Below the pieces are notes generated by a model. The model ran no database searches and was not told the origin of the DNA. It saw only the letters and a list, made by a program, of their open reading frames with translations. Shown piece by piece: positions 2,936 through 56,171 of a DNA stretch of 64,000 bases. Source of the DNA: Malania oleifera (taxonomy: Eukaryota; Streptophyta; Magnoliopsida; Santalales; Ximeniaceae); the NCBI RefSeq assembly GCF_029873635.1, contig NC_080423.1, forward strand, positions 104,017,773 to 104,081,772. Reading direction: 5' to 3'. Both the position numbers and the translations under genes were made by a program. How positions within the stretch are numbered: position 1 is the stretch's first letter; every line of letters begins with the position of its first letter.

Positions 2936-3122
2936 AGTTGAACCATATCATGTGTACTCTTCCAGGCCTAATACAATTACTTTATTTGGCTGAGTGGATT
3001 ATTTTGTTTTGAGCCAATGAATGGACCTTGAATTCTTTATCTTTTCCTCAAATTTGAGATTCCTGGTTTATGTGTTGAAGCTTGGTGATTCTTATAAGCA
3101 CATCTGGTTTGCAAATTTTCAG

Positions 3123-4056
3123 GTTTAGAGGTTCTTTTAGGCATTGATGTACATTTTAGAAACTATAAGAATGACTTATTTAGCCACAAAAGTAGAGAGT
3201 TGGATAGAGAACTGATGGGCATTGAAGAAAACAACCGCATTAATGGATCAATAAGTTCATATTTGCGGTTACTATCTGGACACCTTCAACTACCTTCTGC
3301 ACTTAAAACACTGGAATACTTGATACGCAAATACAAGTGAGTATTAAAAGTCAGTGTTGTATTAGTATTGTAATTTGTTTTTGTTTTTATTTTTTGTTTT
3401 GAGTGATATGATATTTGTTGGAATTACAGGATTCAAGTATACAACATGGAAGAAATGATCCTTTGTGCTTTGCCTTATCATGACACCCATGTTTTTGTGC
3501 GAATTGTTCAGTTACTTGATACAGGGTGAGGAAAATCATAGTTATGATTTATTTGCATTTGTGTAATAGCCCTGCGACGCTCTTTTCTCCTCCTGATGTC
3601 TTGTATTCTTGTGGTGTAGAAATAGTAAATGGAAATTTCTAGATGGTGTTAAAGCATCTGGTGCTCCACCACCTAGACAGGTCATAGTGCAGCAATGCAT
3701 ACGTGACATGGGGGTTTTGGAGGTTCTATGTAACTATGTGAGTTTTAACTGCATCAACTTTAGTTTTTTTTGATAAAAAAATGCTTGCCATTTTAATATA
3801 ATTGTTTCCTCATAATTTTTTTTTTTCATAACTTATCATTTTCCTCCCTTCTGGTCATCATGAATTGATTGTTTTCCTGCAGGCATCTCCATCAAAGAAG
3901 TATCAGCCCTCAAGGCCTGTCATCAGCTTTTGCACAGCAATTGTTGTTGAGGCTCTGGGCTCTGTCACAACTGTTGACAATGATGTTGTGAAGAGAATTC
4001 TTCCATTTGTTGTTTCTGGACTTCAGCATGGTGCAAAAGGAGGCCCAGATCATAAG
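3123..4056 (+). CDS. HEATR1: HEATR1 exons 2-5 (N-terminal part)
   Basis: Four closely spaced exons (3123-3336, 3430-3525, 3620-3737, 3883-4056) encode the conserved N-terminal segment, with landmarks [57 protein letters not shown] and [18 protein letters not shown]. The first exon is entered in phase 1 after a ttttcag acceptor, so a start exon ending in a single base must lie upstream; I found no candidate in bases 1-3122. The exons join without stops and end on a complete codon before gtgcat at 4057. The compact spacing here contrasts with the 7.6-kb intron that follows. Confidence 0.92.
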
Positions 4057-10000: not shown

Positions 10001-13000
10001 CCTGATCTGTCTTCATAATCTTCTTCCAAAATGGTTTCTTCTCTGCATTTCTGAACGAATACCATTTGTTGGCACATCATCTCCCATTCCTCCAGATCCC
10101 ATGGCCTATCAGTGTTCTTCTGTGAAGCTTCTCAAGCCATCACCTCTTAAGTCTCCTAGAACAAAAACAGAAAGTCTTTTCCTATTCTACCCCAACCCTA
10201 AAGACTCCCTTCACAGGCCTAATCGCCATATGGTAATAAACTCTCCCAAATCGTCTTCTGCCAAAAAAAAATTTCCCTAACCTACAAATATCCGGGATAA
10301 ACAATCAGAGGGCCATTTTGCTGACACTGATGATACCCTTTCCCAATGATTGTGAACCAGATTTGGCTCGAGTAGAAAGATGAAACAATCTTCCTCCACT
10401 TTCTTCAGTCTTGATTTCTTTTATGGAAGATTTTACCCAGAGTGGGGAACGTGATGGTTTCAGATTATTTTTCTTCCAAAATAGTTGACAAGTGAGAGGG
10501 AGAGAAATGCAGTACTCAGTTTGGAAGGTTTTACCCAATTATTGCAAAGATCAGGTTCAGGTTTTCAGCCCTTCTCTGTTTCTGATCAAATATTTGGAAA
10601 GCTAAGGGTCTGTTCAGTCGTGGAAAACAATTTCCATTTTTAATGTTCCAAAGAATTAGGAAAATGCCACCTTGGTTTCCAATTTGTCAACATTTGTATA
10701 ATAAATCTGAAAACAATGAAAATTTGTTTTCCTGCTTTTTCTATTAAAATGTTAGAAAACTGGACAACAAGGTGACATTTTTGTAATTGTTTGGAAAAGT
10801 TAAAATGGAAAATAAAAACTGTTTGCCACACCTGAACATGCTCTAAGATTCCCTCTGAGATTAGGGCTCTCATGTGGACTTTGGTTCTTAAAAAAAGGGA
10901 GGAGGCCTGGTATGGCAGTCCATCTAGATATTTGGGGTGGTGTGTTGAGCTTCTAATGAAACAAGTGAGCATCTGCTTCTTCATTTTCAGGCGACGAGGC
11001 AGCTTTGGTGTAATCTTTTTGCTTTAGCTGGTGAGATGCGGGTATCTCCTCGTGCGTGGATCATCTTTTGAAGATGAAGTGTGGGAGCTCTGTCAAAAGC
11101 AAGAAAGGGAAAGTCCTGTGGCAGAGCAAATTCTTTGCTATGTTTTGGATTTTGTTGATGGAATGGAATTCTTGCTATAATGTTTAAGGATCAAGTTATG
11201 CCTTTATATATATATTTTTTGTGGGATGGAACTGTTTTTCTTGCTTTTCTTTGGATGCTGGCTCCGAAGATGTTCTGGTGTTTCTTTTACTTGTTTGCAA
11301 AGGGTTCTGAGGGTAATTGTTTCTCTTTTTTTGTTGGAGGACATCTTAATTTCTTTTCTATAAAAAAAATCTACTGATTAATTTCTGGGTCTTGTGATCC
11401 TTTCCAAGTTATTTATCAATTTCTGTTAGGCTTTTGGAGCTTGGCATGATCTCTCATTTTATTATGCTTATGCTGGTATATTAACAGCCTGCATGTTTGA
11501 GATGGTCTTATCTTTAGGTTGTTCCTCATTTTTTATTTTGTACTTGTTGGGTGTTGAGTGTGATTTGCTGCCACTATCTTCTTTCACTTTTGCTTATGGA
11601 TTTTATTTTTCATACACTTTATTGCAAATTGTGTGATATTTTAATAATTTTTTATACAGGCTGGTGCTTTGATGACCATTGTTTTACTAGCAAACAGAGC
11701 GGCATTATCTCCTAAACTTGTCAATAACTTAATTAGGTCAATTGCTGAGGTAGCTCGAGAAGATGCAAAAGAATCAACTGACTTGCAATGTTTCCGCACG
11801 TCTTTGATGGCTTTAATCAACCTTGTTCAGGTATCTTAAGGTGCTACATTCAGTGTTTTTCTTTTTTTGATCTCTTTGAACAAAAATGATGGTCAAGTTG
11901 ATCCTGTTAAGGTGTTATTGGTAATAGATTCCTTCATTTTTAGGTTTTTTGATCAGTAAATAACACCCAAATACAGCAAACTTAAGATCACCCGCACTGC
12001 AGGGTGTCACAAAAAACAGGAATTACAAGAGGATCATCCAAAGCAGTCTCCTGTACCTGCTTGTAACAATAGCAATCAGCTGTTCTTCACTAATCTGAGG
12101 GCGTAGCTGCTCCTTCAAAGGCTCTCCTATTTATTTCCTTCCAAACACACCAAAAGATGGCAAATGGGATGAGGGTCAAAACTTTCCTCTTCTCTTTGTG
12201 GCTTGGATTCCTTTCCTAGTCCATAACTCCTTCCCACTGAGCTGGCCATGGCCCACTGCTGCCTGGTCAAGGAAAATACCATGCTCCCAAAGTTCCTGGT
12301 CCATGGGTGACGCTGGGGGATGTGGCCAACAGATTCAGCATTATCCATTCATAAAAAACACCTATTAACGAGGGGCAGCCCCCTTTTCTGCAGGTTATCA
12401 AGGGTTAAAAATTTCCCCCCAGGTTGCCTCCCAAGCAAGAAAGGCTGTTTTCCAGATATGCGTCCAAGGAAGCTGCCATAGTTTGTCTCCAGTGGGGAGT
12501 GTTTCCTGTAAAAGGATCTGACAGTGAATCTGCCATTACTAGTGAGGATCCATTTTAGTTCGTAGTTAAAGTTCAGGAAATGGAACTTGTACAAGTAAGG
12601 TGATCAATTTTGCAATCAGTGATGTTCCTAATCAAGGGAATATTCCAAAAGATCGTTCGACTCGAAATTTGAAGATGATGACTGATAAGGCCTTTCTTAT
12701 TGCAAGCTAAACTGAAGACGGAAGGAAATTAAGCACTGAGGTGCATTTGGCTGCTCCAAACATCATGCCAAAGAACATATTGTCCCCATTTTCCACTTGA
12801 TAACTGATGAAAGGGAAAAAATGACCCCATCCTTTTTTGATGGCAAAAGAAGAGATTTCATTAATAGACATCTACTGAAAAAATTATGAAACAAACCTGA
12901 ATGAAAAAACTAAAAAACAACATAGATGAAAAAAAGGAAAAATCATGCCAACAAATTCCTCCAACATTTTTTGATGTATTTCGAAACCCCAACTCTGTAG

Positions 13001-16000
13001 CATCCTTTCTCAGTGTTAGTGATCCAGTCATTATGCTTTAGCCCATATTTAGAAGCAATGACTCTCCACGAGAAGAATTTTAGCCCCGAGCCCCCGAAAT
13101 GGATAGGTTGTTTAACTATCCCCAACTTGCCAAGGTGGTATTTGAGTTCCTTCGCCAAGCTTCACCCAAGGAATCTCCTTTGAATTCCTTCAAGCCTATT
13201 GGCTGCTGAAACCGGTAAGGGCAAGGGACATATAATAGACCTGGAGGTTACTGAAGGTGCTCTTGATTAGTGCGAGTCACCCTCCTTTTGGCAGGAAGTT
13301 CCTTTTACCCTGAAAATTTTTGGAATTCCTCAATAAGTAAATGCACCACATATTGGCCATTAAATCACAAACCCATAAATTTTCTAGGATCTTTCCATCT
13401 GCCAAAAACTCTTAATCTAATTATTACAGCTCTTCCACAGTGCCTGCACTAACCCAATGTTCTTCCTCTAGAATGTTAAAAAGATAATTCCATAATTTTT
13501 GGGTAAAGCACCAATGCAGAAAAAGATGGGCAGCAGTCTCAGTGTTTCACTATTCTGTTTGCACACCCTCTCAGAACCTAACATGCTTAGTAAGAAGTGA
13601 AGGGTTTTACACCAAAAAAATCTCAAAATCCTCTCACCCCAAAAGCAGCCAACCATGGCCATTCAATCACAAACTCTTGCAATTCTATAATCTTTCTGTT
13701 TGCGAAAACCTCGAAATCTAATCAGAAACAGATCTTCCATAGTTCTTGGACTAACTCAACATTCTTCCTTTACAATGTTAAAAAGATAATTCCATAAATT
13801 TTGAGTAAAAAAATAATGCTGAAAAAGGTGGGCAATTGTCTTACTGTTTTGCTTGCGCACCCACTTTTGGAACTGAATGTGCTCTGGAAGAAGAGGACGA
13901 ACATTAGACTGATGATGCAGTTTGTTTGAAATTCCCTCTGCTATTAGAAGTTTTCTTCTAGTGGTAGTTTTGCTTCTAAGGAGCTTCCTTTTTTCCCATC
14001 CTCTTTCAAAGCCCCCAAAAAGTATAGGAAGGAGGATAAAAGTTATAAAAAGGTATAGATCCACTAAAATTCAATTCTTCTATTTTTGTGACCATAGCCA
14101 TCCTTCTCTACCATCACCATTATCTTTGTGGGTTGACACAACCATAGCTTTTCTCGTCTCCATCTTTGGCACCACACTGATGTTCTGAGCTACCATCACT
14201 ATCACCTCTTCACCCAACTTTTCACCTCCTGCAGCATGAGCAATTTTTTTTTTTCATCACACTGTGATTGCCTCTATAAACAACCTCCAGTGTGGAGGTC
14301 AACATTATTATCACTTATTTTTCAGCAGTTACACTGCTATATTTTCTGTCACAACCTCCAATAGGTTGTCATCCTTGCGCAATTGCATTGTTACTGCAAC
14401 TGTCATTTCTATTGCCACCATTGTTCCAGAAAATCACCACCTTCTTCTTGAACTGTCTCAATGCTTTCAGCTCCTTATAACTGTCACCACAACCTGTGCC
14501 TTTAGCACCACCCTTTTAAAAATCTCCACCACATCAAATGTAACTGACTTCAGCTTCAAGAAAGCAAGATCTTCACCGTTTGCCGATATGGCCGTAATTC
14601 GTACCACCATAACCTTCATCAACACAGTGGTGACTCAAAATACTCTGTATACCATGTCATTGCAACATTGTCGTCGCTGTTGTTGCTTCCACAACCTGAT
14701 AGCACAACATTCAGTACCATTTGTACCTTCATCAGAATAGACACTATCATCACAGCCATCTGCAACTACAAGTGATTTGCCGTCATCTCAACACTCATTC
14801 CAATACTAGTTTTAATGTCAAATTCAACCTCGTTATATAAAGGAAATTGAATCTTATCAACCATTTATACCTTGATCGTTATTTAATATTAAGTGAAATC
14901 AAGTTTGTTTTTAAATGAATGCACATGTGTGTGTAGTTGTGTAGATTTCTGGTCTGTGTATTAGATGGTACAACTAGACTCCTTTTTGACTTGACTAAAT
15001 AGTTGTGTATTTAGTATTTGTTTAGGTAAATGGTGGCATGCTATTTTATGTGACTCATTGGTTTATTATTCTCTTTTCTTTTCAAGCTGCATCCTCATTT
15101 ATTTTACACCTATTTTTTTAAATTAAATTCAATGCCTTGTCTTATTCCCCCCCCCAACACGCCCCTTCACCTCCCCTTTGTATTTCTGATTTTTCATTTT
15201 CCTATATTTGTGCTCAACTGATTTATTTAAAACTTTGTTTTTCTAGATGCAATCTGTTGAAATTTTCCCCAAGAAGGCTTTGGATATGCTGAATGAGATT
15301 AGGTAGTCTTTGATGGTCTGAATTCTGAAACATTTCCTTATAGTTTGTATTGGTTTAATTATCCTTATAAAAGCTTTCTTGGTTAATGCATTTTCATTTT
15401 GGAAGTGATCTTTGTGGTGTGCTTACGGGGCTCTTCAAGGAGTTCAACATAGAAAGGTTCCTTGCCATTTTTCTCGAATCCTTGGCTGACTACAGGTCTG
15501 GAAGTGATTATTTAATTCTTCCTGTAGAAATCATTCTTCTTCTGCTTATGGTTCTAAGACAACTTATTATCTGTGCTCCAGTTCTTCTGATGATCGGTGC
15601 CATCGAGTTATGATGTCAATTATAGAGGACGTTCCTGTGAAAGGCTTTATTGATCGCATAGTCTCCAAGCTGCTTTCTTCCTGCATGAGGTTATCACAGA
15701 GGATGGGTGATTCTTCATCGTCAGGACCAGGTACTTGGCTGAGATCTTATGCATCTATTCTTTGTTTGTCCTTTACTAATGTAAAAATTTGGAGTATCAA
15801 TCTCTCTCTCATATAAAGTTTGCTGTTCAGCTGCCTTTTTTTTGCTCATATTTTATTTTGCCAATTAGCTTTATTTTTCTCGTTGTTTGATTCTCAAATT
15901 ACAAGTAGGAATCTGGGCCAAGCAAATTTTGGTTATGATTAATAAGAAGTATCCATCAGAATTGCGTGAGGCTGTTCGCAAGTTCATGGAGGTCTGTTTG

Positions 16001-19000
16001 CTTGTCTCTCTCCATCATTGCCATATCTTCCCTCTCTCTCTTTCCCTCTCTGATTTTAATTTTTAGTCCTCTTTTTTCCCATTTTATTTGTCAGGATGCC
16101 AAAGTGCAGTCGAAGAAAGAGGGGTCTATAATTGAGGTTTTGTGCCGGAGGTTAGATGGGAATTTGGACACTCCATCTGAGATCTCAGATTCAAAAATTT
16201 GGCTTGCATTGGAACATCCAAAGGTTTCTGGCTTATAATATTTATTTTAAATTTTGTACACTTCAACCTCCTTTCTTAAACATAAGCGCAATGCAACACT
16301 TTCTTCACTTTTTTATGTATATAAGCATACCTAGATGCACCGGATTTTAGAGCTTATGCTGTACCATAACCGCTTTGGCCCTTTCCTCTTTGACAAACTA
16401 TAACATCACACATTCTTGTACTCTGAAAACATTGTTATTTGCAAATTTTCCCTAGCGCTTTTTACATTTACGTCCTTTGATTTTACTAGTTGTACATTAC
16501 TAGTTATGATTTTATTACATTATATAGGCTGAAGTTCTTTGATTTTACTAGTTGTTCATTACTAGTTATGATTTTATTACATTATATAGGCTGAAGTCCG
16601 ACGTGTTACACTGTCAAATCTGGCCGCGTATGGAATTTTGGATGACAACATAGCTAATTCACAGGTATTATGGTTGCATTTCTTCATATCTTTATAATAA
16701 ACAATTCTTTCTATGGTGTTTGGGTAGTTTTTTGTCGTCAACATGTTTATTCTGATTTAGAGCAAGTGTTTGTATCTTTGACTTTGGTCTCTGTGTGTTT
16801 TTTAATTTTTACCTTGAAAGGAAAAGTTTAGGTTCTTGATATAGGGATGAAGATGACCTTTTCCTCTGAATTTAAGAGGTTGGAAGAGAAGAATCAATTG
16901 AGAAAAACTATCCAAATTTTTGAATATGCAGAATTTTGATATGTTCATTAGGGTTTGTGGTTTTGAGGCATCTTCTTTTGGGCCATGCTCTTTTCTCTTG
17001 GTCGGTGTGAGAGTTTTTTCAATGGGATTACCTGCGTGAGACCCCTCATGATGACTCTGCTCTCACCGACACCTTTTCTCATGCCGACTGCCTCCCTCGT
17101 CTTCGTCCTTCTTTCTTGGCCACGGTGAACCTTCCATCGCACCCTAAATCATCCCCTTGATGCCTTTTTAATATATATTTTCTTTGCTGATAAAAAGAAG
17201 TGGGTGGTGAGAGGACTGTTGCTAGTTGTATAGACAGGTTTTGTTTTGTAGTGACTGGGATACTGAGTTTTTTTTTTTTCTCTTGAAACTGTTTTATCGA
17301 CTGTCTAGATTTGTGTTCGATCATTTTCCTGTTTTGTTGGAATCTAGCAAGGATAATTTGGATCCATCTCCTTTTTGGTTAGAAAATATGGCTTGATCAT
17401 TACTCCTTTCCTCTTTGGTTAGGGATTCTTGGAGTGAGGATTTGGAGAGGGGTTGGGAAGGGTTTAGGATCATGGGAAACTTAAGCATCTTTAAGGGACT
17501 TTGAAAAAGTGTAATGAGGATGTCCTTGGGGATATTAGGATTAAGGAGGCTAGAATAGGAAAGAGGACTGTGTATGTGTTGGAGGATATGATTTTTAAAG
17601 AAGCAAGGAGTTGGAGGCATGACTAAATTTAAATGGGCGAGCGTTGGCTAATGGGAGGATGAGAAAGAACCTGATTAGGGTATTGGAATTGGGAGGGGCA
17701 AGGTTCTTTCTCATGCAAATGAGATGACAGATTTTTTCTCAAATCTCTACCCTGAGTTGGATACTTACAGGCCAGGGTTTAGATTGTAACTGCATTTCTA
17801 GAGATGTGGTAGTTTGGATAGAAAGACTTTTTGATAAGGAGGAAGTAAGGGTAATTGTGTTTGGGATGGAGAGAGATAAGGTCCAGGTCCAGATGGGTTT
17901 AATATGGATTTTTTTTTTTCAAGATTGTTGGGATGTAATTAGGGTAGCCTTGTTGGAGGTCTTTTCGCTACTTTTGGGAGCATGAATTTTGAGCTTTGGA
18001 TTTGGATTTGTATAGATTTGGACACAATTCAATATAATTTTGTATGAAATTTTATCCAACTACACACAAATCCCAATCCAAGACCTATTCCAAACATAGG
18101 GTTAGGGGGCATTTGATTTGAATGACCTTTGAATGGAGGCTATATTTGAGATTCAGTGAACCGGTTAGGCATCAAAGCGTTTGGTGGCAACTCTGAATTT
18201 TCTTAAAATTCCTCTGATAAAACCAACATGGAAACACATCTAATTTGGATTCAGAGGTCTTTTTTCTAATTTAATCCTTTATAAAAATGAAAATGACAAA
18301 AAAGTCAATACCCAAGTGATTAAAATTAAAACAATAAAGTTTATTTTTGTACAACAATAAATTATATTTTTATTTATAATTAATAATAAATATATTGCAA
18401 AAAAAATATTATTTATATTAAATTAAAGGCTTTAACTTTTGCAGTTGCTTATTAATTTAATCAAATATCTATGCTCCTAATTATTAAGAAGGTTAAAATT
18501 GAAAAACAACACATATTTAGATATTAGATACAAAATAGTTAAGATAATTGTGATTTTTGATTTAGTGACCTGTTCATGTTCAATTCAGAACTGGTTCACA
18601 AAATCAGATTTCAATCCAGTGTTCAACACTTTTAACACTTAATTTTACCAAACACACCCTTAGTGAATCTTGAGTGGAATATAAAGCAAGAGTATTAATT
18701 CCAATTTAGTCACTTTGGTTCCTAAGTGGGGTAGATCTAGAGATTGCTGATGTTAGACCTATTAGTTTAATGACTTGAGTGTATAAGGTTATTGCTGAAG
18801 CGCTAGCTAATAGGTTGAGTGCAGTGTTACATGATGTTATTTCTTTTGCTTCAAAGTGCATATGTGGGGTGTTGGCAGATTGTGGATGCTATTTTGGTTA
18901 CTTGGTAGTTTTTGTTTTTTTTTTTTGGGGGGGGGGGGGGTCGTAGGAGGAATTTGTAGGGGCTTATTTTTAAATTGGATTTTGGAAAAGCTTTGTGTAT

Positions 19001-28000: not shown

Positions 28001-31000
28001 AAAGTAACTTCTAAAGTGCCATGGCCGTAGAGTGTTGAATGTTGTGATTCCATCAATGGAAAAATCACTAGTGCCTACTCTACGAGAATTACAAACCATA
28101 TTGACAATGACAAATTGTTTGTTTTTGGGTGGTTCCATCCGCTGTCATTGATCATCATTATTGTAGCTACCACGATTTGTGAAGGTCCTGAAGGAGCGAT
28201 GATGAATGATGTAAACCCAATGTCTGGTGTTTTTGTTTTGAGGTAATCATTACTGTGTGTGTGTGTGTTTTCCATAGAAAGGTATTATTAGTGTTGCTTG
28301 GGAAACTTCTTGTTCTTGATGTCAGCGGATTTGTGAATGCTTTGTTGTTTTATGATGTGTACTGTCCATCCCCTTTATTTGGATCACTATCAGCTAGTTG
28401 GCTGCAAAGGCACACCTGAACCGTAAATTTGTGTCTTGTTGCATGAATTTGTTGCATGTCTTGAACTTATAAGCATTATTTACTATGAAACTGTAAACAT
28501 GGGTGCAAAATCACCTATATTGGTTGATGTCTCTTATTTTTTTTATTATTTCTTCTTTCTGTGGTCCAGAGGCTTGTAAATCTTGAAGATGCGATATTGC
28601 GCCGGCTGCATGATGATGATCTGACTGTTGTTCATGCGGCTATGTCATTCCCTAGTTTGCCTAAACTGTTGAGTTCTCCATGTCTTCTGGATGCATTTAA
28701 GGATGTACTCCAAAGAAGTGCTGATATTTTGATTCAGGGTTAGTATTGCTTGACATGAATGCTTATCAATGTTTTCAATGGCCTTTGTGTGCTTTTTCAT
28801 TAGGTTTTGTAACATATGGCACATAGATATTGTTTGTAATTCTTTGTTTTTATTATTGCAAATGAACGCAAATTGTTAAATTTCATATTGGGTGTTAAGA
28901 ATGATGCTGATGTAGGATATGCAGACGTGCATCCTCATGTGTGGGCACATGTGGAAGAAGGTGGATGGTAGGGAAGGGGAAGGGCTAATAGTTTCTGTTG
29001 TGCGTACTTTTTATTTCAAGCTCTACATGTTCTGTGCCCATAATTTGGGTTATGTTCATTATATAAAAATGTGTTTTTCAACTTAAAAGTGCTTGAAATT
29101 ATCCCTTCAAAGAATGTTGGTGTAAATATCTGTAAAAAATTCCCTACTAATAACTTTATATGATCATCTGTAGAAGAAAATTGTAAAAGAAATGCATACT
29201 GAGATTGGTGAGGAGCTAGCAATGAAGATTAGGAGCATGTTCATTCTGATGTCCATGAGAATGAATGTGTGCTGCGTGGATGCACACACGAACCAGAATT
29301 GCATTTGGGGAGGGTGAAATTTCTCATATTTTAGTTGATGGAAATCATCCTTATCTTTCATTAAGCTATGTCATTGTCTTCTAGGCTCGGTCATCTGTCT
29401 GTGTCTGTGGAAAAGTCAAATGCACGTGGAAGTTACTCCATTTTTTTTTTTTTCCATTTCCTATTTTCCCCCCTGGGAGATGGGGGGGCGGGGGGGGGGG
29501 GTGTTTGATTTCTAGCACTGGTTGTAGTAACTAAAGTTCTTTCAATGCTGTTGATCAGGGAGATTTTTGTATATGTAGGGATGTTTTAAAAAACCTTTCA
29601 ATTTACACATCAATTATTTTATGCAGAATTTATATACAAACATCTTCAAGTCACTAGCAATCTTGCCAGTAACAAATGGTTATGGAGATGCTTAGTGAAC
29701 TGCTGATAGAAGCTGAGGTGAGGGATCTGTTTTAGGGGTTTTGGGTAGGTAACCTGAATGATGAAGTTGTTAAGTCTCTCATATGTTGTTTGCTGATAGC
29801 AATATTTTTCCAGTGATACTGTGGAGGAACAGGTATTAATATCTGATGCATTTGCTGCTTTTGAGGCTGCCTTTGGTCTGAAGATGAAATTAAGCAAGAG
29901 TATCTTTTATGTGGATAGGGGGCCAGGTGGGCAGAGAAATGCTGATATTTTTGGCTGTGTCAATGGTCCCTTCTTGCTTAGATTAGTGCTGCCTTTGAGA
30001 GCAAAATAGAAGGATAAAAGAGTTTGGGATGCATGATTGAAAATTTTAAGAGAGAAACTGGCAGGTTGGAAGGGGGAATGTCTTTCAAAGGTCGGCAGAT
30101 TGACTTTGATTAAGAGTGCTTCATCTATTTTTAATACTTTGTCTTCCTATCCTTGGCTTTGTTGCAAGAAGGCTCGTAGCATTTAAAGTAGAACTCTTTT
30201 GGGCAATGGAGAAGACGTGTTAAAACTCCATGTCGTGAGATGGGGAATTGTGAATTTCAAAAGGTAAGATTACTTCTGGAGATGAGAAGCTGGAATTAAA
30301 CACGTGGGAAGCAAGGTCTTAAATTTCGATTTCGGCTCAAATTTTGAAGCTCCAAAAGCACTGAAATTTTGACGAAAATTTTGATTTCAATGTCAATTTT
30401 GATTTCAATTTGAAAATATAACGAAAATTAGTAGTAAAGCATTGAATTCTTTGTGAAATTTTAGAAATGGTTAACAGACGTAATAATATAAGTTTTAGGA
30501 CTAATATATAACAAATTAAATACATCTATGTTTTGTACGAGGTGGAAAAGTTGTAAAATAGTATGTGTATCAAACATATTTGTGAGATAATGTACATTAA
30601 ACATATTCAGTTAGTACAAATGAAATTCATAAGCCATTTAAATCATGGTTTTAAATCACAGTAGCGGGTAGCGTAACGTAATGGTAACGGGTGTAACGGG
30701 AAGCAGGAGTAGCGGATGTTACATAACGGGAAGTGGGTGTAACGGCCGTGAATTTTTTTGAAGCATACACAACCTTGTGCATATTAGCGTACTTGCATGT
30801 TTTAAGCTTTTAGCCATCCTTAGAAAGGGTTTTAGTGTATTTTGGACCCTTTTGTTCGAGTAACTAAGTTATTTGGTAAGGGCAACAAGTTTACATTTGT
30901 TTTAAACCATCATTGATAGAAAATTACATGTGTGCGAGTATTTATACTTCTCATTGTTCTTATTTGTGATAAATTCTTATGTGTGCTAAACGAATTAATA

Positions 31001-34000
31001 AAATAAAATACATTATACACTCCATTAATCTATTAGACACATAAGACATACGAATAATATAAATATAAAATAGCTAGAAAAGAAAGAAGGTTGAAGTTGA
31101 AAAATAAAGAACATAAATATCACATTACTAATATTATTAAAAATAAATAAATTTCCCTAACAAGTTAATATTTTGAAATTGTTAATTAATGCATCTATTG
31201 TGAGTATTTAAAGAAATAGTAAATTTTGTATCATTGTCATCCTCATTATAATCTTTTCCCCCTCTTGCCACTTGGTATATTGAGAATGATATATGAAAGA
31301 GAAGAGAAAAAGTGATAAGAAAAAGTAAAAAATAAAATATTTTTTTGGTGTAATAGTCCTGTAGCGGTTACGTAACGGCCGTAGCGGCCTTTATGTAATG
31401 GTTGCGGTCCATAACGGTCGCTACGGCCGTGATTTTTCTTCCCACCGATTTCGCAGTGTGTAACGGTATCGGTAACCCAAAAAACCTTTATGTAACGGCG
31501 TTACGTAACGGTCGCGGCCTTTATTTAAAACCATGATTTAAATATTATTTATTATACAAATAATGATAATTTAGACATGAATGGTTAAATAAAATGTTAC
31601 TGTAAGTTTATTGTTTTATATAATTTTAAAAAGCACTTGTAATAATCTTTTGTTTCAATAAAATAAATAAAATAAATTAAAAGAGAAATTTCACTTCACT
31701 CCTAAATCTCTCATTTGAATTCCAATGAAATTTCATTGTATAGTTAAAATTTCGACAAGTTTTGCTAAAATTTCAAGATTTGGATAAATTTCGGATGGTT
31801 CGTTGAGATTTCAACGGAAATTATGTAATACGGAAATCGACCATTATTTCGATTTCGTGGGTAACGGAAATCTGAAATTTCGACAATTTCGTGAAAATTT
31901 AAGACCATGGTGGGAAGTCACTATGGTTGGATTTTGAGGTTATAAAGTGTTCACTTGGGATGGGCTTGTGGAAATACTTAAAGGTGGGAATACTTAAGGA
32001 AAGGGTGCATTGAGTTTTTCTTGAAGGCTGCTTATTGTTGTTGGATATAGTTCTTTAGTTATTATCGGATAGATGTCTGGTGTGGCACCACTCCCCTCAA
32101 AAATATGTTTCCAAGACTTTAGAAGTGGTTTCTAACAAAGAAGATTCAGTGATCAGTTTATGAGGACAAAAGACCATAGGTGAGATAGCATTGACGATCC
32201 AATGATCAGTTTATTTAGGGGAGATGACCACAGGTGAGATAACATAGACAATTCAGCAAAAATTTTAGAGATAAATATGGAACATTGTTTGAGGCTCTTG
32301 AAGGTGGAGGAAGTTTAGCCAACCTTCCTTGGGTGTACCCTAGAGTGGAAGCCCCTCAATTAAATCTTTGTACCCGTGGTTTATTGTTGGAGAAGGAGAG
32401 TCGGGGACTCGGGGGCAGCTAATTTCCCTTTGAAAGAAGTCTCAAAAGCCAAGATTTGTTCCACAGTGGTCTTTTTCTGTTGGGAAGTCATGTGGCAAAG
32501 CATTTTACTATTATAGATTCATGGGAACGGTTTCTGTACTGGTAATGAACTCTTTTATTCAAAGATCAGGGGGAGGCATTTAGTCACATTTTGTTGCATT
32601 GCAGCTGGATGTGATAGTTTTGAAGTGTAATTTTTGCTTCTACTGGGATTACTTGGGTGGTGGCAGATGGTGGGAATGGAGCTGCAATTCTGGAGGGGTT
32701 CTTTCTGTGGAAAAATGGGAGGCTCGGCCTTGAGACTGCCCGGGGATTGATTTCGGCATGCGGAGTGAATGTGAAGGGAAATGTGTCTGGCCATTTTGCC
32801 ACGGCTAAGGTATAGTTGTGTGGTTATCTCTGGATAGCAGGCTATTTGTTGATGATTTTTGTATGATGACTCCCTATCTGTGCTGGGGTGTCATGATGGG
32901 CGTTTGCGTTATTAGTCTTAGTCCGTTTTTAGTCGTTGGGTGTACCTCTCCTTTGGGTTCCTTTTTCCTGGAACTGTAGCTCTGTCACACCCGACTGTTC
33001 TTCTCCCCTGTACCACATTGGGCCTGTTATGGATTGCCCTGCCCGCCATGACTGTGTCTTTGCGCAGCTGGCATTGTGCCTGTGCTGCATGGATGCCTAT
33101 GTTGATTACCGTTGGTTGTCTTCTTCCCCCCGGTGTAATGAGGCAAGTCTCAAGGTGAGCCTCGATTAAGCCTTTGAAAACATTGCATTGCACAAAATAA
33201 AATGACACTTCAACAAGGAAATGGGTAGTAAGAGTTTTTTGATCCCCAAAACATCGAATTACAGATGTAGTTAACAAGGTTCATCTTCCTAACATTTGAA
33301 CTAACGACCATTTCTTCTTGGTGTGTTCTTTGCAAATTATTCGTGTGCTTTGAGTGTTTTATTTTTTTATTTTTTTATTTATTTTTTATTTTTTAATGTT
33401 GATGGGTACTTTTATACATGACAAACTGAGTAGAAGGATGCCTAACTGATCTATTTATTGGCACACAGTCTATCAACTTTCTGGTGTGTGCCTCTAGCTC
33501 TCATTTTTCAAAGAGGTTGAATTTTTAATGTTTTAGGGGAAAAAAAAGAAGGGGTATTTTTAGACGGTCAATAAGATTTCCTTCCCCCCCCCCCCTCTTT
33601 TCTGTTGATTTCTGTAATGGCCATTTGAGCCCTTTAAGATCATTTGTATTATAATCTAGGTAATGATCAAATTAGTATTTTTTGATTTAAAATTTCAATT
33701 TTTGAATTCCTAAACGACTCTAATATTAACATAACTTCTCAAAAGTGCAACATGACTGCATTTAACAATTGCTGACAAGAAAGGATAGTAACCATTTAAG
33801 CTGGACCTTATTTATTAGTACTACGAGCTCTTTAGTATTTATACGATCCTTATAAATAGCGCTTTATTTATGTTTTCTACTGGTTACTACAGACACATCG
33901 TGATCTGCTCCTTCCCCAGGCCCTGCATGCATGAGGGCTTTGCATATCAGGCTGCCCTTTTTGTGTGTGTGTGTGGCTAGTTTTATGTGTATTATATATG

Positions 34001-37000
34001 AATAAAATATTTCCAATTTGTGAATGTTCTGGTCTGTATCATGTTTTCAAGATTGCTATTCTTGCTCTAGGTAACCTAGATTAGAAATGGATGCCACAAA
34101 CCAAGCCGAATTGATTGAATTTTCAGATTTGCTTCATTTATTTTGCTAAGTTGATATGTTTGTACTGCAATTTTATACCTGTGAGAGCATGCTCTTGATG
34201 AATGTGCTTTGGAACTTGAGGTAGCATGGTAAAAAGTTTTGTTGCTTTTATGTTTTTCTTTACTTCTTTTTGTGTGGAATTTGATATTTTATATCTGACA
34301 CTGGACCAGATCTCTCTTGGACTTACTCTGCCAAGCAATGTCAGACTAACTTATTTTTACCATTCACCCCTTAAATGATTGCAGATTACTTGCTCTGCTG
34401 TATGCCAGATGCTTGATTTAGTTTTAAAACGTGAAGCTTCCATAATTGATTTGACATATGCAAAGAGAAAAAAGAAAGCACTAAAACAGAAGAATTCTGA
34501 TCGGCGTCCTAATGCGATCGGTAGAGGCGAAAGCTCACTTTCTTTTCTTTGCTCTCTGCTTGATATTCTGTTGCTGAAGAAAGACATAGAGAACAGGTCT
34601 GTCATCATCAGTGTGTTGAATTTGTGGTGTGTTATCTGGTCACTGAATTTGTGACCTTTGGGGTTTTAATGTTGCTCTCTCTCTCTCTCTCTCTGGTTGT
34701 AGGGCTTCTCTTATAAGGCCACTAATTATGCTTCTTGGCAAAAGTTTTGAGGAAGAGTGGGTCCGTGAGGCTGTCGACCAGCATGAGAAGGGGGCAGAGT
34801 CTTCATTCGGAATTTCTCAAACTGTTTCCAGCATAATATGTTATATCCAACAGACCTCTTTATTAATTTTGCAAGATATTGCTGCTTCGTTCATATCTGA
34901 CCTTCCACCAAATGTATAGCCCTTTATAGTCTGGAAATTTAAATCATCAGTAGAATAATAGTATCTTCTGCGATGACTTTCTGCTTTTTATGTTCTTCTG
35001 AACTTTTTTTTTGATAACTATGTTTCTTAACTTTGAGCAATATATGCTTCCGGCAGGATGGTGTTAATGATTTTGATGTGGAATTGTTGGTTGAGTGCGC
35101 CCGCTCTACGAAGGACGCAGCAACACGTAATCATGTGTTCTCTTTGTTATCTACAGTTGCAAGGGTTTCTGCAGAAAAAGTTTTGGACCATATTGTAAAT
35201 ATTCTTTCTGTTATTGGGGAGTCAGCAGTGATTCAGGTATTTATTAATTCATTTTTGGCTTTATTAACGCCATCATGTAGTAAATTCCAGAATCCGAAGC
35301 TTATGCTTTACTTCAATTATTCAATCACCTCGTTCTTCGTTAATAGAAGGAACTAGTTGAGAATTTATGAAATATTAGAGGAATTTTCCTATTTGAGACA
35401 TATCCTCTCCAGTTTTAAGGTATATTCATGCTAGATTTATGTATGACCTCAAATTTTTTTTTTCTTTGGTTTATTGGAAAGCTCCTTGGGCCTAGGTTAC
35501 AATCCTTCCCCACTTCTTACGCAACTAAAAATGAGACTCCAATATAAAATCTATGATCAAATCATTTGGTGTCCCACAGAGGACTTACTGAGTTTTTAAA
35601 CGACCAGAGGCCACGTTTTCACATCTTTGTAGTGATTTGCTGAATTTTTGTTGTATCACCTTTTTGTAGTATGACAGCCATTCACAATGCGTGTTTGAGG
35701 ATCTTATATCTGCCTTAGTTCCATGTTGGCTCTCTAAGACTGACAGCGTTGACAGCTTGCTTCAGGTTAGAAAACCTTTCTGCTGGAAGATTTATTTATT
35801 TGTCTTTCCCTAGAACTGGTGTGTTGATTTGGTTGGGTTTTTCCAGATTTTTGTAAATGTTTTGCCTGATGTTGCTGAGCATAGAAGGTTGTCTATTATT
35901 TTATGCCTGATAAGGTAATGGTTACATAAATATTTTTGATCTAGTTTTTTGTGTTTCTATAGTTTTCTTAAATTTACACATTGCTGTTACAGGACACTGG
36001 GAGAATGTAGTAGTTTGGGTTCATTGCTTGTCCTCCTTTTCCGTTCACTGGTTTCAAGGAAAATGTTATCTTGCGAACATGATAATACATTACCCTTCGA
36101 TTGTATTATATCAAGTGCTAGTGGAGAATGGGAATATGCATTTGCACTCGAAATATGTGAGCAGTACTCATGCATGATATGGCTTCCTTCTCTAGTTAAC
36201 CTTCTTCGTCAGATTGGAATGGGCGATCTACGCAGAGAATTGTTTGTGGAATTGCAATTTGCAGTGCAGTTTATTTTAGATAAGTTGCAAGATCCAGAGT
36301 TTGCATTCCAGCTTGACTCTGGGGAAGATGCAGATAATGTACAGGTACATGTCAATTCATTCTCCAACTTCTTCTTTGGCTTAGTGTACAATACATGTTA
36401 CATAAAACATCACATGCTTTTTTTTGGTAGAAAACAGTTCCTTAAAATTTTTTGCAGATATTCTTTTTTCAAAGAATTATTTTAAGAAATGTCTATTTTA
36501 ATTTAAATTCAAGCTGATCATATGATGTTTTTATTTATTTATTTAAAAATCTAATTCTTTTGTGAGCCTAGAGTCAATGAATTTAAGTATGCATTAAAAA
36601 AGACGAAAAATCGAAGGATTTCATTTCCAATTGAAAGTTGGAAATGCCTAGGTGATAATGGAAAAAATATGGTCAACTAAGGGGCTGTTTTGTTATCACT
36701 GTTAAAAGTTATGAATGAAGACCAGAAACAAAAATTAAAAATCAGTAATAGAAACTAAAAAGTTAACAATATTTAGTTAATATTTCAAAAACTAAAGCAA
36801 ATTAAAAACTTGATTAAAAACTAAAACCTAAAACTTGTTTTGTAGTATCCTTTTCTATTCGTACATTTTTTTGGTGGGTGGGGGGGGGGGGGGTAGCTAG
36901 AAATGTCGAGTGTCATAACAGATTTCTTTGGACTGCAGGGGAGATGTCTTTCTAGTATGCTACCTTGTTTATTATATATTTATAAAACTCCACACTGCTT

Positions 37001-49000: not shown

Positions 49001-52000
49001 AGCATGTCAAATGTGCATGGCTGAGTCCTATGTGCATTTTCACTGACCCAGACACCACAATGTATCAAACTCCAAAAAATCATTGTATGATATTCTACGG
49101 CCACATTAGTTTATTCCAGACATATTGATCCCATTGGGAGTCATTAAAATAGTGTTATGTTGAAGTTTAGGTCAAAATAGTTGTTTGCTGTTTGCCGTAA
49201 TAAGGAAGAAAATTTCATCCCTGTGTTGCTTGATTCTTATTACGGTGTGACCGAATATTCTGCATACAACTATATTTGACCACGTGTAGTACCAGTACCA
49301 CCATGCAGCTAACTGCCATTGAGCATTTGGATCTTTGTTTTTTCCATCAGTGACCCTGTCCTCTTTTGAAAAACATTGTTGTTTTATTCTTTTTGCTTTA
49401 AGCGAAGATAATCTAAACCTTTTTTGATCTGTTGAACAAATTATTATATTGATTCATTTAAATTTGTGCTGTGCTTTTTATGTCTGTTGAACCTTTTCTC
49501 CCTTTGTGCTGTACTTTTTATAAGAATTTGTGCGGTGAACTTTCTCTGTAAGTAGTTATTTATTTGAAAATTATGCTTTTAATATGATTTTAAAGGATTG
49601 TGCAGTGGGTTGATGTCATTCCCTGTTTCTAAATTTATGTTATGCTTGTTATAGTAATTTGTCAAGGCTATTTGCCTTAAGTAGTTACGGGCTTATAATA
49701 ATTTTTGGACTTGAATTCCACAGAAAACACTTGGAGATCTTATGGAGCAGGTTGTTTCTCACTTACAAAGTGTTAGCTCAAAAAAAAAGCAGATCAGTGT
49801 TCCTGGCATCATAAAAAAAGAATTAAATGAGTGTATGCATACTGTCTTGAGGTCTGTTACAAAAGCTATGCTCCCCTCAGCATACTTCAATGGAATCATG
49901 AAACTGCTGTCCCATGCAGACAGAAATGTGAGAAAAAAGGTAGGTAACTTTCCTAATGTAAGTATAGTTTAAGAGGAAATGATTTAGCCGGTGTGTATTC
50001 CTTTATTGGCATGCTAACATTAATTGTTTTGTTGTATTATAATAGATAGTTGTCAGGGTTTCTGGAGCCTAGATATTGTATGTGGTCAAGAGGAAAATGC
50101 TTTGTTGGTTGAGGTTATTTATTTCTTTGTTATTCTTTATATAAATGCAATATTAGGATTATACTGTAGTTTTATTGGAGCAGCCCCCTTCCATACCATT
50201 TCTCTCTCTCTCTCTCTCCCTCCCTGCCTCTTGTTTTCCATTTTTTTTTAGAACCAAACAATCAACTGGATATACTAGTAAAGTCTGCATATTTAGGTTT
50301 CCAGCATTCTGATTTTCCTGTTGTCAGATTTTTTGATATTCCATGAAATGAAGTCTATGATTTACTCTTCAAATGACATGGTCAGCATAGTCAAAACTGT
50401 TTTCTTCCCAGGGAATTTGTTGTGTTATCCCATCAGATTACCATTATAGTCAAAACTGTTTTCTTTCCAGGGAATTTGTTGTGTTATCCCATCGGATTAC
50501 CATTATTGTTGCCTACCGATGGATGCATAGCTTTTATAAATCTCATTTAAATTTATCCTGTTAATTATTGCTTTGCTTAATGCTTTGGGAGTTAGGGTTG
50601 TCATCATTCTTATACTTTATTTGCAAGCAGGCTCTTGCGCTTCTATGCGAGACATTGAAGGATAATGGGGCAATAAAGCGGAAGCAGGGGAGAAAGGAAT
50701 TGAATTCTAATTCAAGTACTCGTTGGCTTCATTTGGATGAAGGTGATCTGAAGTCGTTAGACAAGATGTGTTTAGGAATTATTCATTTAGTTGATGAGCA
50801 TATTGATGATTCAAATGCTTCCTTGAAACTTGCGGCAGTTTCTGCTGTTGAAGTTTTAGCCAGCCGGTTTCCTAACAATTATTCTATCTTCAGCTTGTGC
50901 CTTGCTTCTATCATTAAAAACATCAACTCACACAGCCTCACCCTCTCTTCAAGCTGCCTTCGAGCAGCTGCTGCTTTGATCAATGTGCTGGGGCCAAAGG
51001 CACTGTCTGAACTTCCTCGTATTATGGAGAATTTGTTTAAGAGATCTGATAAAGCCTCCTCAAGTTCAGCTGCAAAAAATAAATGCCGTGAAGTCAGCAT
51101 TTCTCTTGAGTCATCAATTTCTAAGGAATCACACATGCTGTCTGTTCTTGTAACATTGGAAGCAGTTGTGGGCAAGCTTGGTGGCTTTTTAAATCCATAT
51201 CTCAGAGATGTTATTGAACTTCTGGTGCTACGTCCTGAATATGTGTCAGTGTCTGATCTAAAGTTAAAACTGAAAGCTGACAGCGTACGCCAGCTTATAA
51301 CAGAAAGAATTCCTGTAAGTTTCTAATCAAAATGCTTGAATTTTTAACTTTTGTTTGGAACTACTCCACCCCCAACCACCACCACCACTAAAAAGGAAAA
51401 AGAGAAAAAAGAAAAGAAAAGAAAAGAAAAAAGATGTTTAGGAGTCGTCAAACTGACATTTTCTTCAACTATTTTCTAGGTTCGGCTTGTGCTTCCGCCT
51501 CTCTTGGACATATATTCTGATGCTGTTAAGTCTGGAGATGTAAGTTTGTCAATTGCTTTTGAAATGCTGGCAAATGTACTTGGTACAATGGATAAGTCAT
51601 CTGTTGGAGGTTACCATGCAAAGATTTTTGACCTGTGCTTGCAAGCTCTTGATCTTCGCCGTCAGCACGTTGCTTCAATTAAAAACATTGATGTGGTGGA
51701 AAACACTGTCATCAATGCAATGGTTGTCCTGACAATGAAATTAACGGAGTCCATGTTCAAACCTCTTTTTATTAGGAGTATTGAATGGGCGGAATCAAAT
51801 GTGGAAGAAAGTGAATGCAGTGAAAACATGAATACAGATAGGGCTATTTCTTTCTATGGGTTGGTAAATAAACTTGCTGAAAACCATCGGTGAGTCACTT
51901 TATCCCTTATGCTCTTATCATTGCGCATATGCCCATTCAATTTTCCTGTTTTATTGAGTGTTCTTTAATCCACATTCAAGTATCCAAATTGTTTGAGTAG

Positions 52001-55000
52001 AATATATTTTCTGGATCTTAATTACTTGTTCAACTAATGTTTATGTTGCCTACTCAAAAATCCTTTCGAACAAATGCCTAAATTTATTGTGCCTGATTAA
52101 GAGCCCCACCTACAATGGTGTGTGTACATATTTGCATGGTTCAAAACCAAACATCATGTATACATTTACATTTATACATGCTTATTTTGGGGGTTAAAAC
52201 AAGGTATTTTTAAATTTTCTTCTTTAGCTTCATAAATTTGGCAGGACTCACATTAGCTGTGCATACAATGAGCTAAGTAGGAAGTTTGCATTTTTCATTT
52301 AACATTTTGGATTGTTGATTCTTGAATCTTATTTCTTATTTCATTTTTACTTTTTTGTTTCTTGAAATTATTAGGGTGATTGAGTATTTTTTTCCCATAT
52401 TTAAAAAATATTTTCTATATAGCTATATGGTAATCATGTTGTCATATTTCTATCTTTTTAGTTTTGGGTTTTTTTCAATAATATATATATATATTTTTTT
52501 TTTAAATTTCTAAAGTGAGATTCGTTAATAGGGCCCCAAGGGGGTGCCACTCCTGTGCAAGCCGAGGAAAGAGAAAGAAACAGAAAGTGTTGAATCAACT
52601 GTGTATTAAGTTTTCGAGAAATCAAGAATTGTGCATGTTCTGCATGTACATTCTACTAAATCAACTTGTAAGAGTTTTAAGTCATCTATCCTTGTTGTGA
52701 GAGAAATGGTAGAGCTTTTGAAGATACAACTACTTCTAACAATCTTGAACCAGATGATGTCTGTTTCAGGATTTCTATCAGCAAGCTTCAAGCAAATATT
52801 GATTGGTGGAATATTGATGATGGTTCATTTGTCTGGATGTTCTACTTTGCTCATGATATAAGTTCGAACGCTTTTTGTTGTATATTTTAATTTCAGTATT
52901 CTAATTAATATTTTCGTTCTTGTAATAAATAGTTAAATAAATGGCTTTATAGTTACTAACCAAGCTGGTTCTTTTTTGACTGGGGATCAGTTTGGCTTTC
53001 ACCTTTTAGATTGCTTCTGTTTTTGAATATAAGAGTTGTGCATAAGCCTCTGGGAACGAGCCTTTATCTCTTGGGTATTCCTAGAAGCTCAAAGATGGTT
53101 CCTTTTGAACAAGCCATCATTTTGTTGGGTTGCTTTCCGTTTGAATGTAAGAGTTATGCTGCTTATGCATGAGCCTTTAGGAAGAAGCCTTTATTTTTTG
53201 GGTTCTTTGAGAATCTCAAAGATGATTCCTTGTAGAAGCTTAATAGTAAGTTTTTATGACATTTTCAACACTTCATTGATGTTACTGAACTTCCAATTGC
53301 TGATTCTGCTTATTATTAATTACTTTAGAAGAAAATTGCTGGACACTCCCGTAGCTGCTTTGCTTAAGCTACTTTTCATCAACCACAGGGATGGTGCTCA
53401 GTGCACTTGAATTATTATCTCTGGTCATTTCTTTTATGTTGCCTTGTATTGAATACTAAAAGTGCATATTTCTAGTCATATGCACGAACTTGGATTATTT
53501 TCTCTTGTTATTTGTTTTATGTGTGTGTATGTATATTAGTTCTTTTCAATATGATTATGGTTGTTTTGCCATTCATGTAAGCTGTATGGTGTCGGTCCTT
53601 GTATGAGATAATTTTAGCTATTGAATATTTTTTTTGACATTTATGTGCAGATCCCTATTTGTCCCATACTTCAAATATTTGCTCGAGGGTTGTATAAGGC
53701 ATCTTACAGATGCTGAAGAGGCCAAAGCTGTTAGTTTGACTCGAAAGAAAAAGAAGGCCAAGCTTCTAGAAGGAAACTGTGCTAATGGTGGAAAAAATGT
53801 ACTCTCACCCCAAAAATGGCATCTCAGGGCATTGGTCTTACTATCCTTGCACAAATGTTTTCTATATGATGCTGGAATCCTGAAGTTTCTGGACCCAACC
53901 AAATTTCAGGCTAGTCTTTAACCTCTGTTTTTCTGTCCTACTTACATCTAAACAAGATGAGATCTTTTCAATCATATACGACTTCTTTTTAGATTTTTAG
54001 AGTATACAGTTGCAGATGGTATGTTTTTCATACCATGGATTTAATATATAAACTATTTGTTATTCTTTTTTGTTGTGTTCTTGTTATTGCAGTTCCATTT
54101 TCCATTTGGAAGTAACCTAATTACTCCCGTATCTGTGTACTCTTGTCCCCTTTTGGCACTTGGTAAAAATGAAAGGAAAATGTAAACAAAGGGTAATAGA
54201 AAATATTTTAAGCTGAAATTAAATTTTATTAAAACAATTTGAAGTATTTATTTTGTTATCTGTACCAGAAATTGAAAAACTGACTCTTTTTATTCTACTG
54301 GATGGACTGAACTTTTAAAAATAACAAACCAATTAACAAAAATGCATTTTTTTGGCTAGTTAGTTCATTTTACAGGGTAATGCACACCCCTAAATGTCCA
54401 AGCTAATTGGGTTATTTTACTGTTAAAGCTTGATATACATTGTTAATCCACAACCTAACAGCTTAAGCTTTTTAGGTGAAGTGGCAATCTAAAATGGTAT
54501 CAAAGCTGGTTACCTAGAGGTCTTAGGTTCTAGTCTTATTGCTTGCGTTCACTGTGTGGCGTTTAAAAAAATTATTATATTCCCTGTAATGGGTGTTATC
54601 TACTGTGTGTTTATCTCTTAACGTGCTGGGGAGGGTTAAAACTTGATATGCATTGTTGGCTCACAACCTAAAGGCTTAAAGCTTTTAGGTAAAGTGGCAA
54701 TCTAACATTTACAAAATTTATTTTTCCTTGTTGTTTATTTAGGAAGATGAAAGAAATGTAATTGTTGATTGTCACTGCTTTTAATATGCATCTTCTCTAG
54801 TAAAATGTTGTGGATTTCAGGCAGTTAATCTTTGTTCGATAAGCAGCCATAGTTATTGCTTTTATGAATGACTGAAATTTTGTTTGGATTTTTTCCCACA
54901 AGAAGCCATGTGCTATTGTTGCTTAATCGCGGTTCCTTTCTAACAATTTGCCCTTTTTAATTGCAGGCTCTGTTGAAGCCCATTGTTTCGCAGCTTACAG

Positions 55001-56137
55001 CAGGACCTCCAATGTCCATTGAAGAGCATTCAGATATACTGTCTGTGAAGGAAGTTGATGACTTATTGGTTTCATGCATTGGTCAAATGGCTGTTTCCGC
55101 TGGAAATGACCTTTTATGGAAGTCCCTGAACCATGAGGTGGGTTTCATATTTTGCGCACACTTTTTTTCCCCCTAATTTCTTCTCGTTTGCCCTTCCACT
55201 ACCTAAGCACCACCCAGAACAAATTGTTATCTTAACAGTAATAAAAAAATATTTTACAATTTTAAAATTCAGTTATAATTTTGATTTTTGGGCAATATTC
55301 TTGAATTTCCCTGCTGCTTGTGCTCTTTAGGACAGAGATGACATATTGTGACATGATATTTTCTTTCATGATAAGAAAAACCTGCAATAATAAAGAATAA
55401 ATATAGTGAGAATTAAGTAATTAATAGAAGTTATTATGTTCATGATGGAATATATGATACACATTGTCCTACTTTTCCAAATGATTGTGATTGTATGTAG
55501 AACTGAAAATCTGTAGGATCATGGTATAATTGGTGGGATGATTGCCTCCCCAAGGGTGGCTCAGGTGGTAAACTCAAGGCTCTCGTGGTTAAAATGTCAT
55601 AGTTCGAGTATTGAGGGTTTTGGCTTTCCATTTGAGATTATACCTTGGTATTTAAGTGGAGAAGTGTAGAGGTACAGGTCCATTATCCCAATGGATTAGT
55701 CCAAGTGTTCAAAAGGCCTTGGATATAGTTGTTTTAGGAAAAAAAATTTGGTGGCAATCATTAGGATCCTACAATAATTTATATTTTTTGGCAAGAAGCG
55801 TTTGGTAAACAAATTTTGTGTTGGTCGTATACAGCTTATGCAAGAAAGAGGCAACTTAGTAAGTGATTTTCTTTAAATGAAATTATAAGATCCTAATTGT
55901 CTGATTGTGGTGGAAAGGAAATCCTGTTAGATGGTGGTAAAACTAAGGTGAAAAGGGTCAGAGAGCATTTGCTAACTTGAAGTGTTTGATGAATTATGGT
56001 GAGAGGGGTTTAAAGAGGGGTTTTCTTGGTTGATTGCCAGTTTTTACTTATATTTTTTATTTTATTGTATTATTTTTACATTTTTCTTTTGAGGATCTCT
56101 TATGTCCTCCCCCAGGATGTAATTTCTCTCACTTTTA

Positions 56138-56171
<34 letters not shown>

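What the first reader, a model, noticed from the sequence alone, without database searches (positions are those of the whole stretch)
28570..34596. HEATR1 lacks the exons for about a quarter of its protein, and the flanking exons are out of phase
Seen: the exon ending 28738 leaves phase 1, while the next recognisable exon (34385) opens in phase 0. A direct join hits a stop within about eleven codons. Known: plant HEATR1/UTP10 proteins are about 2,150 residues, and several hundred residues separate these two segments. Inferred: the central exons were deleted, perhaps by recombination between LINE or hAT copies that now fill the interval, or the assembly collapsed here. If real, this locus gives an N-terminal product ending ILIQG-stop, or is a pseudogene beside an intact paralogue, in an otherwise essential ribosome-biogenesis gene.
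Basis: partly seen in the sequence, partly recalled or inferred. Interest (0 to 1): 0.75.

Follow-up and report, generated by a model that had tools for sequence, protein, structure and literature searches.

The report
Plant HEATR1 gene missing central exons
A plant copy of a large ribosome-building gene has 24 intact exons here but lacks the block of exons for about a quarter of its protein; this is probably a piece left out of the assembled sequence or a recent deletion rather than a new biological device.

Summary
On the + strand, 24 recognised HEATR1/UTP10 exons (3119-57174) are open and joinable, but exons for about residues 563-1132 of a 2,162-residue plant protein (26%) are absent from 28739-34384 and from the whole window on both strands: 0 of 25 60-residue pieces found, against 72 of 72 flank pieces. 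The absent block includes the plant domain PF24477. Exon 12 leaves phase 1 and exon 13 opens in phase 0; a direct join stops at the 11th codon. The window has no N. The interval holds LINE-like sequence and two nested hAT-like elements, each with exact 8-bp target duplications, so the proposed hAT recombination is not supported; LINE recombination is neither shown nor excluded. All 24 recognised exons are intact, so the loss is recent or not real: in a neutral simulation 4% of copies stay intact at 0.5% divergence. I lean to an assembly omission over a recent deletion; no genome or reads were held to decide. An ordinary kind of finding; low interest.

The parts
3119..4056 (+). HEATR1 exons 1-4 of those recognised in the window (3119-3336, 3430-3525, 3620-3737, 3883-4056); the exon for about residues 1-52 was not found in the window
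11660..16664 (+). HEATR1 exons 5-11 (11660-11830, 15247-15302, 15406-15495, 15582-15730, 15909-15991, 16095-16223, 16590-16664); exon 11 ends in phase 0; PF12397 lies in the left half
28570..28738 (+). HEATR1 exon 12, 169 nt, opens in phase 0, leaves phase 1, donor AGG|GTTAGT
28739..34384 (.). interval without recognisable HEATR1 coding sequence; exons for about 570 residues, including domain PF24477, are missing
29676..32608 (+). degenerate LINE-like sequence interrupted by hAT A; left part supported (best E 1.7e-5), right part suggestive only
   Evidence: 0 Pfam matches for the 7 frames tested from this stretch and just beyond it
30312..31909 (.). hAT-like element A, 1598 bp, ends CAAGGTCTTAAATTT / CATGGTCTTAAATTT (inverted), 8-bp target duplication GTGGGAAG at 30304-30311 and 31910-31917
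30644..31535 (.). hAT-like element B nested in A, 892 bp, inverted ends CATGGTTTTAAAT, 8-bp target duplication ATTTAAAT at 30636-30643 and 31536-31543
34385..36344 (+). HEATR1 exons 13-18 (34385-34596, 34703-34913, 35057-35236, 35670-35765, 35847-35914, 35993-36344); exon 13 opens in phase 0
49724..57174 (+). HEATR1 exons 19-24 (49724-49939, 50631-51314, 51480-51889, 53651-53909, 54967-55137, 56944-57174 with stop codon); PF23243 and PF08146 lie in the right half (exons 13-24)
16475..16598 (+). 62-bp tandem duplication (60 of 62 identical) that copies the exon 11 acceptor; using the upstream copy (16528) gives an early stop

Best explanation
This is the HEATR1/UTP10 gene of a plant (species unknown) with 24 intact recognised exons, and the assembled sequence lacks a block of central exons (about residues 563-1132). 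Shown: the exons are absent, the neighbours are intact and out of phase, and the interval holds LINE-like sequence with two nested hAT-like elements. Inferred: the block was most likely left out in assembly (a segment dropped between the intron after exon 12 and the intron before exon 13, with no N placed), so the plant itself probably carries the full gene here.
For: 24 of 24 recognised exons are open with usable splice sites. Under simulated neutral decay (2,000 runs per value) 16% of copies stay intact at 0.3% divergence, 4.4% at 0.5% and 0.65% at 0.75%, so a real null copy must be very young, while an assembly omission needs no such timing. HEATR1 has relatives in human and fungal ribosome-precursor structures, and At3g06530 is listed under ribosome biogenesis in a table of PMC4140647 (passage); that it is essential and usually single-copy in plants is recalled. 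In older assemblies of four vertebrates 26-60% of genes showed some type of false loss, missing exons and Ns being the most frequent (PMC9516821, passages).
Against: There is no N anywhere in the window. The interval shows no visible misjoin: both hAT-like elements keep exact target duplications. No repeat pair that could cause a collapse was found between the interval and the rest of the window. The duplicated exon 11 acceptor and the GC donor of exon 22 would also fit a copy under relaxed constraint. The base rate cited is from vertebrates, not plants.
Confidence: 0.48

Rival explanations
1. A real, recent deletion with both breakpoints in introns removed the central exons from one allele or one duplicate; the locus is null (default splicing gives a stop at the 11th codon after exon 12) and an intact allele or paralogue serves the plant.
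For: No N, and two nested hAT-like insertions with exact target duplications in the interval; a 62-bp duplication of the exon 11 acceptor and a GC donor at exon 22 suggest possible slack on this copy. Loss of duplicate genes by deletion is usual in plants (recalled).
Against: 24 of 24 recognised exons are intact, so the event must be very recent. No second copy could be looked for, because no genome is held.
Confidence: 0.4
2. A real deletion whose gene still works: exon 12 is skipped, exon 11 joins exon 13 in frame, and a shortened HEATR1 without the central ARM block is made, which keeps the other exons under selection.
For: Skipping exon 12 leaves an open frame of 1,482 residues to the normal stop. 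Most of the block (574-1081) is not matched in human HEATR1, and the block alone matches no solved structure at E up to 10; yeast Utp10 has about 350 fewer residues between its matches at plant residues 392 and 1278.
Against: 6 of 11 upstream exon ends are phase 0, so frame rescue by skipping one exon is about an even chance. Exon 12 has an ordinary acceptor and donor. Human HEATR1 keeps about 520 residues in this place, and yeast Utp10 has a structured middle domain that contacts its neighbours (PMC5354517, passages).
Confidence: 0.06
3. Exons diverged beyond recognition lie inside 28739-34384.
For: Short or very diverged exons can escape tblastn; the codon-bias scan used as a probe-free check had little power.
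Against: 72 of 72 flank pieces but 0 of 25 block pieces were found by the same search; about 1.7 kb of coding sequence would have to be hidden in an interval about half filled by LINE-like and hAT-like sequence.
Confidence: 0.03

Closest known systems
Plant HEATR1/UTP10 (At3g06530-like)
   Same: PF12397, PF23243 and PF08146 are present in the right order, with colinear exons
   Different: the PF24477 ARM block and its surroundings (about 570 residues) are absent from the window
False gene loss by missing exons in genome assemblies (PMC9516821, passages)
   Same: an internal block of exons is missing while the flanking exons are intact
   Different: the cases described are vertebrate and were shown with better assemblies; here no second assembly could be compared and there is no N
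Partly deleted duplicate genes in plants (recalled)
   Same: intron-to-intron loss leaving out-of-phase neighbours
   Different: no stop or frameshift in the 24 recognised exons, and no paralogue demonstrated

Membership tests
HEATR1/UTP10 | U3snoRNP10 domain PF12397 | tested here: met
   E=1.9e-23 in the left half
HEATR1/UTP10 | HEAT_HEATR1 PF23243 and BP28CT PF08146 | tested here: met
   E=3.9e-72 and 8.7e-42 in the right half
HEATR1/UTP10 | plant ARM block PF24477 | tested here: not met
   present in the recalled plant protein at 628-824; not matched at E up to 1 by the two window proteins, and no piece of it found by tblastn
HEATR1/UTP10 | one continuous reading frame through all exons | tested here: not met
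   direct join of exons 12 and 13 stops at the 11th codon
Processed or decayed pseudogene | stops, frameshifts or lost introns in the retained exons | tested here: not met
   24 of 24 recognised exons open, introns present
Assembly omission | missing DNA present in reads or in another assembly | not testable with these tools
   no genome or reads held
hAT transposon (elements A and B) | terminal inverted repeats and 8-bp target duplication (defining features recalled) | tested here: met
hAT transposon (elements A and B) | transposase gene | tested here: inconclusive
   only one open frame, partly inside A (31788-31934, running 25 bases past its end), was scanned; no Pfam match. Both elements may be non-autonomous

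The most novel reading that the evidence does not exclude
A natural shortened HEATR1: after losing its central ARM block the gene still works by splicing exon 11 directly to exon 13, showing that the middle of this processome scaffold can be dispensed with in a plant.
Probability: 0.06. Interest if true: 0.6.

Novelty: new member of a known kind. Interest (0 to 1): 0.2.

Why it matters
As an assembly omission it warns against calling loss of a housekeeping gene from one contig. As a real deletion it is a very young null allele or duplicate that can be dated and followed. Only if the in-frame short product is made would it say something new, namely that the middle of HEATR1 is dispensable.

Tried and rejected
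hAT-mediated recombination: not supported, because both elements as they stand keep matching 8-bp target duplications. Recombination or collapse between copies within the window: no nucleotide match between the interval and the rest of the window at E 0.01. LINE target duplication: in the ranges searched the best exact repeat was 11 bp (29562/32854), which does not sit at the mapped LINE-like ends; not accepted. Missing exons displaced or inverted elsewhere in the window: none found. A codon-bias scan for hidden exons was not informative: leave-one-out exon scores 0.4-13.4, interval maximum 8.9, three control introns up to 11.5. LINE identity: Pfam gave 0 families for 7 open frames from 29800-33155 and one sub-threshold match (DUF287, E 0.016) for an eighth frame at 28840-28968, so it rests on weak matches to other window LINEs, with no shuffled control. 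Rfam on the window: 0 matches at gathering score. Relatives of exon 20 in prokaryote and viral contigs: none confirmed. Search of solved structures with the recalled block: no match at E up to 10 (none at E up to 1 with short flanks). The tblastx comparison printed nothing (the program is not in the tool's list) and was replaced. Literature: no paper on loss or skipping of these exons in the listings (8 of 8; 16 of 16; 12 of 1,211; 10 of 11; 10 of 6,294; 6 of 226).

Full report
Gene and structure. The window carries a HEATR1/UTP10 gene on the + strand. The stop codon ends at 57174. 21 joins are GT-AG and one, after exon 22 (53909), has a GC donor. The 24 exons are open: 509 residues on the left and 1,029 on the right. 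Pfam finds PF12397 on the left and PF23243 and PF08146 on the right. The exon for about residues 1-52 was not found in the window; it may lie upstream.

The missing block. Between residues 562 and 1133 nothing is found. Cut into 60-residue pieces at steps of 20 (106 pieces), 72 of 72 pieces lying wholly in the flanks score above the best of 318 shuffled pieces (26.2 bits) and 0 of 25 lying wholly in the block do; of the 9 pieces at the N-terminus or straddling a boundary, 5 do and 4 do not. Because the probe is recalled, two independent checks matter. Pfam's plant family PF24477 (named for At3g06530) matches the probe at 628-824 with E=3.6e-90, inside the block, and is not found in the two window proteins. 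Human HEATR1 (7mq8, 2,144 residues) aligns at plant residues 4-573 and 1082-2161 with about 520 residues between. Yeast Utp10 also aligns on both sides but has about 350 fewer residues between its matches at plant residues 392 and 1278.

Phase and outcome. Exon 12 (28570-28738) leaves phase 1 and exon 13 (34385-34596) opens in phase 0. The direct join gives [14 protein letters not shown]-stop; donor read-through gives ILIQG-stop. Exon 11 ends in phase 0, so skipping exon 12 leaves 1,482 open residues to the normal stop. This could arise by chance: 6 of 11 upstream exon ends are phase 0. Sixty alternative GT-AG pairs near the breach also keep an open frame; their fit to splice consensus was not scored.

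What fills the interval. LINE-like matches run in order from about 29676 to 32608. Left of hAT A the best is E 1.7e-5 against the window LINE at 24.8-25.1 kb; right of it all are weak (best 0.018), and the same output lists many unrelated weak matches. By blastp 5 frame pairs between the interval and the rest of the window match at E up to 0.01; I take three of them as LINE (E 3e-5, 0.003, 0.004). Pfam gives no family for 7 open frames of this stretch and just beyond. A hAT-like element of 1,598 bp with target duplication GTGGGAAG sits in this stretch, and a second of 892 bp with ATTTAAAT sits in the first. Both look like ordinary insertions and not products of recombination between hAT copies. 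The interval has no nucleotide match elsewhere in the window. If there is a deletion or misjoin point, it more likely lies in 28739-29675 or 32609-34384 (inferred); a point inside the LINE-like sequence cannot be excluded.

Timing. A simulation of neutral decay on 1,538 retained codons and the splice dinucleotides of 23 introns (0.1 indel per substitution assumed, 2,000 runs per value) leaves all exons intact in 51% of runs at divergence 0.001, 16% at 0.003, 4.4% at 0.005 and 0.65% at 0.0075. The LINE-like sequence has at least 12 stops in 209 codons left of hAT A and at least 10 in 229 right of it in every frame, so it is probably much older than any loss of function (inferred). The transposons would then have stood in introns of a working gene, and the loss of exons, if real, is recent. 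A 62-bp tandem duplication of the exon 11 acceptor, 60 of 62 identical, is another seemingly recent change; use of the upstream copy reads AEVL-stop after exon 10.

Verdict. The absence is real in this sequence. Whether it is real in the plant cannot be told without reads or the whole genome. Assembly omission (0.48) and recent deletion (0.40) are close; a functional short form (0.06) is the most interesting reading left. Papers were seen as passages only: PMC5354517 for Utp10 domains, PMC8788456 for Utp10 flexibility, PMC9516821 for false gene losses, PMC4140647 for At3g06530. No paper on loss of these exons appeared in the listings. On checking, the odds of the short form in the section on the most novel reading were set to 0.06 to agree with the rival list; no other odds changed.

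Noticed in passing
16475-16598: 62-bp tandem duplication (60 of 62 identical) that copies the 3' splice site of HEATR1 exon 11; the upstream acceptor gives a premature stop.
   Followed up: yes
53909-53911: Exon 22 has a GC donor (CAG|GCTAGT) instead of GT.
   Followed up: partly
18927-18940, 29490-29501, 33584-33595, 36880-36893, 37773-37802, 47791-47805: Long G or C runs (12-20; the fifth broken by one T) in HEATR1 introns; two lie in the interval on either side of the transposon nest. Such runs can hinder sequencing (recalled).
   Followed up: partly
40481-45213: Copia-like retrotransposon remains in the 13.4-kb intron 18 (Pol_BBD and gag_pre-integrs above cut-off, RVT_2 below it), flanked by similar ends of about 130 bp (88.6% identical).
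   Followed up: partly
50387-50506: 59-bp tandem duplication (96% matches) in intron 19.
   Followed up: no
58053-59360: F-box gene in a single open frame (PF00646 with KIB1-4-type beta-propeller) downstream of HEATR1.
   Followed up: partly
62155-62565: Start of an acid phosphatase B-like gene (PF03767).
   Followed up: partly
4858-5369 and 18155-18664: Inverted pair of about 510 bp, 79% identical, in introns 4 and 11; an unnamed repeat.
   Followed up: no
59960-60236 and 60799-61083: Direct repeat of about 280 bp, 91% identical, between the F-box and phosphatase genes.
   Followed up: no
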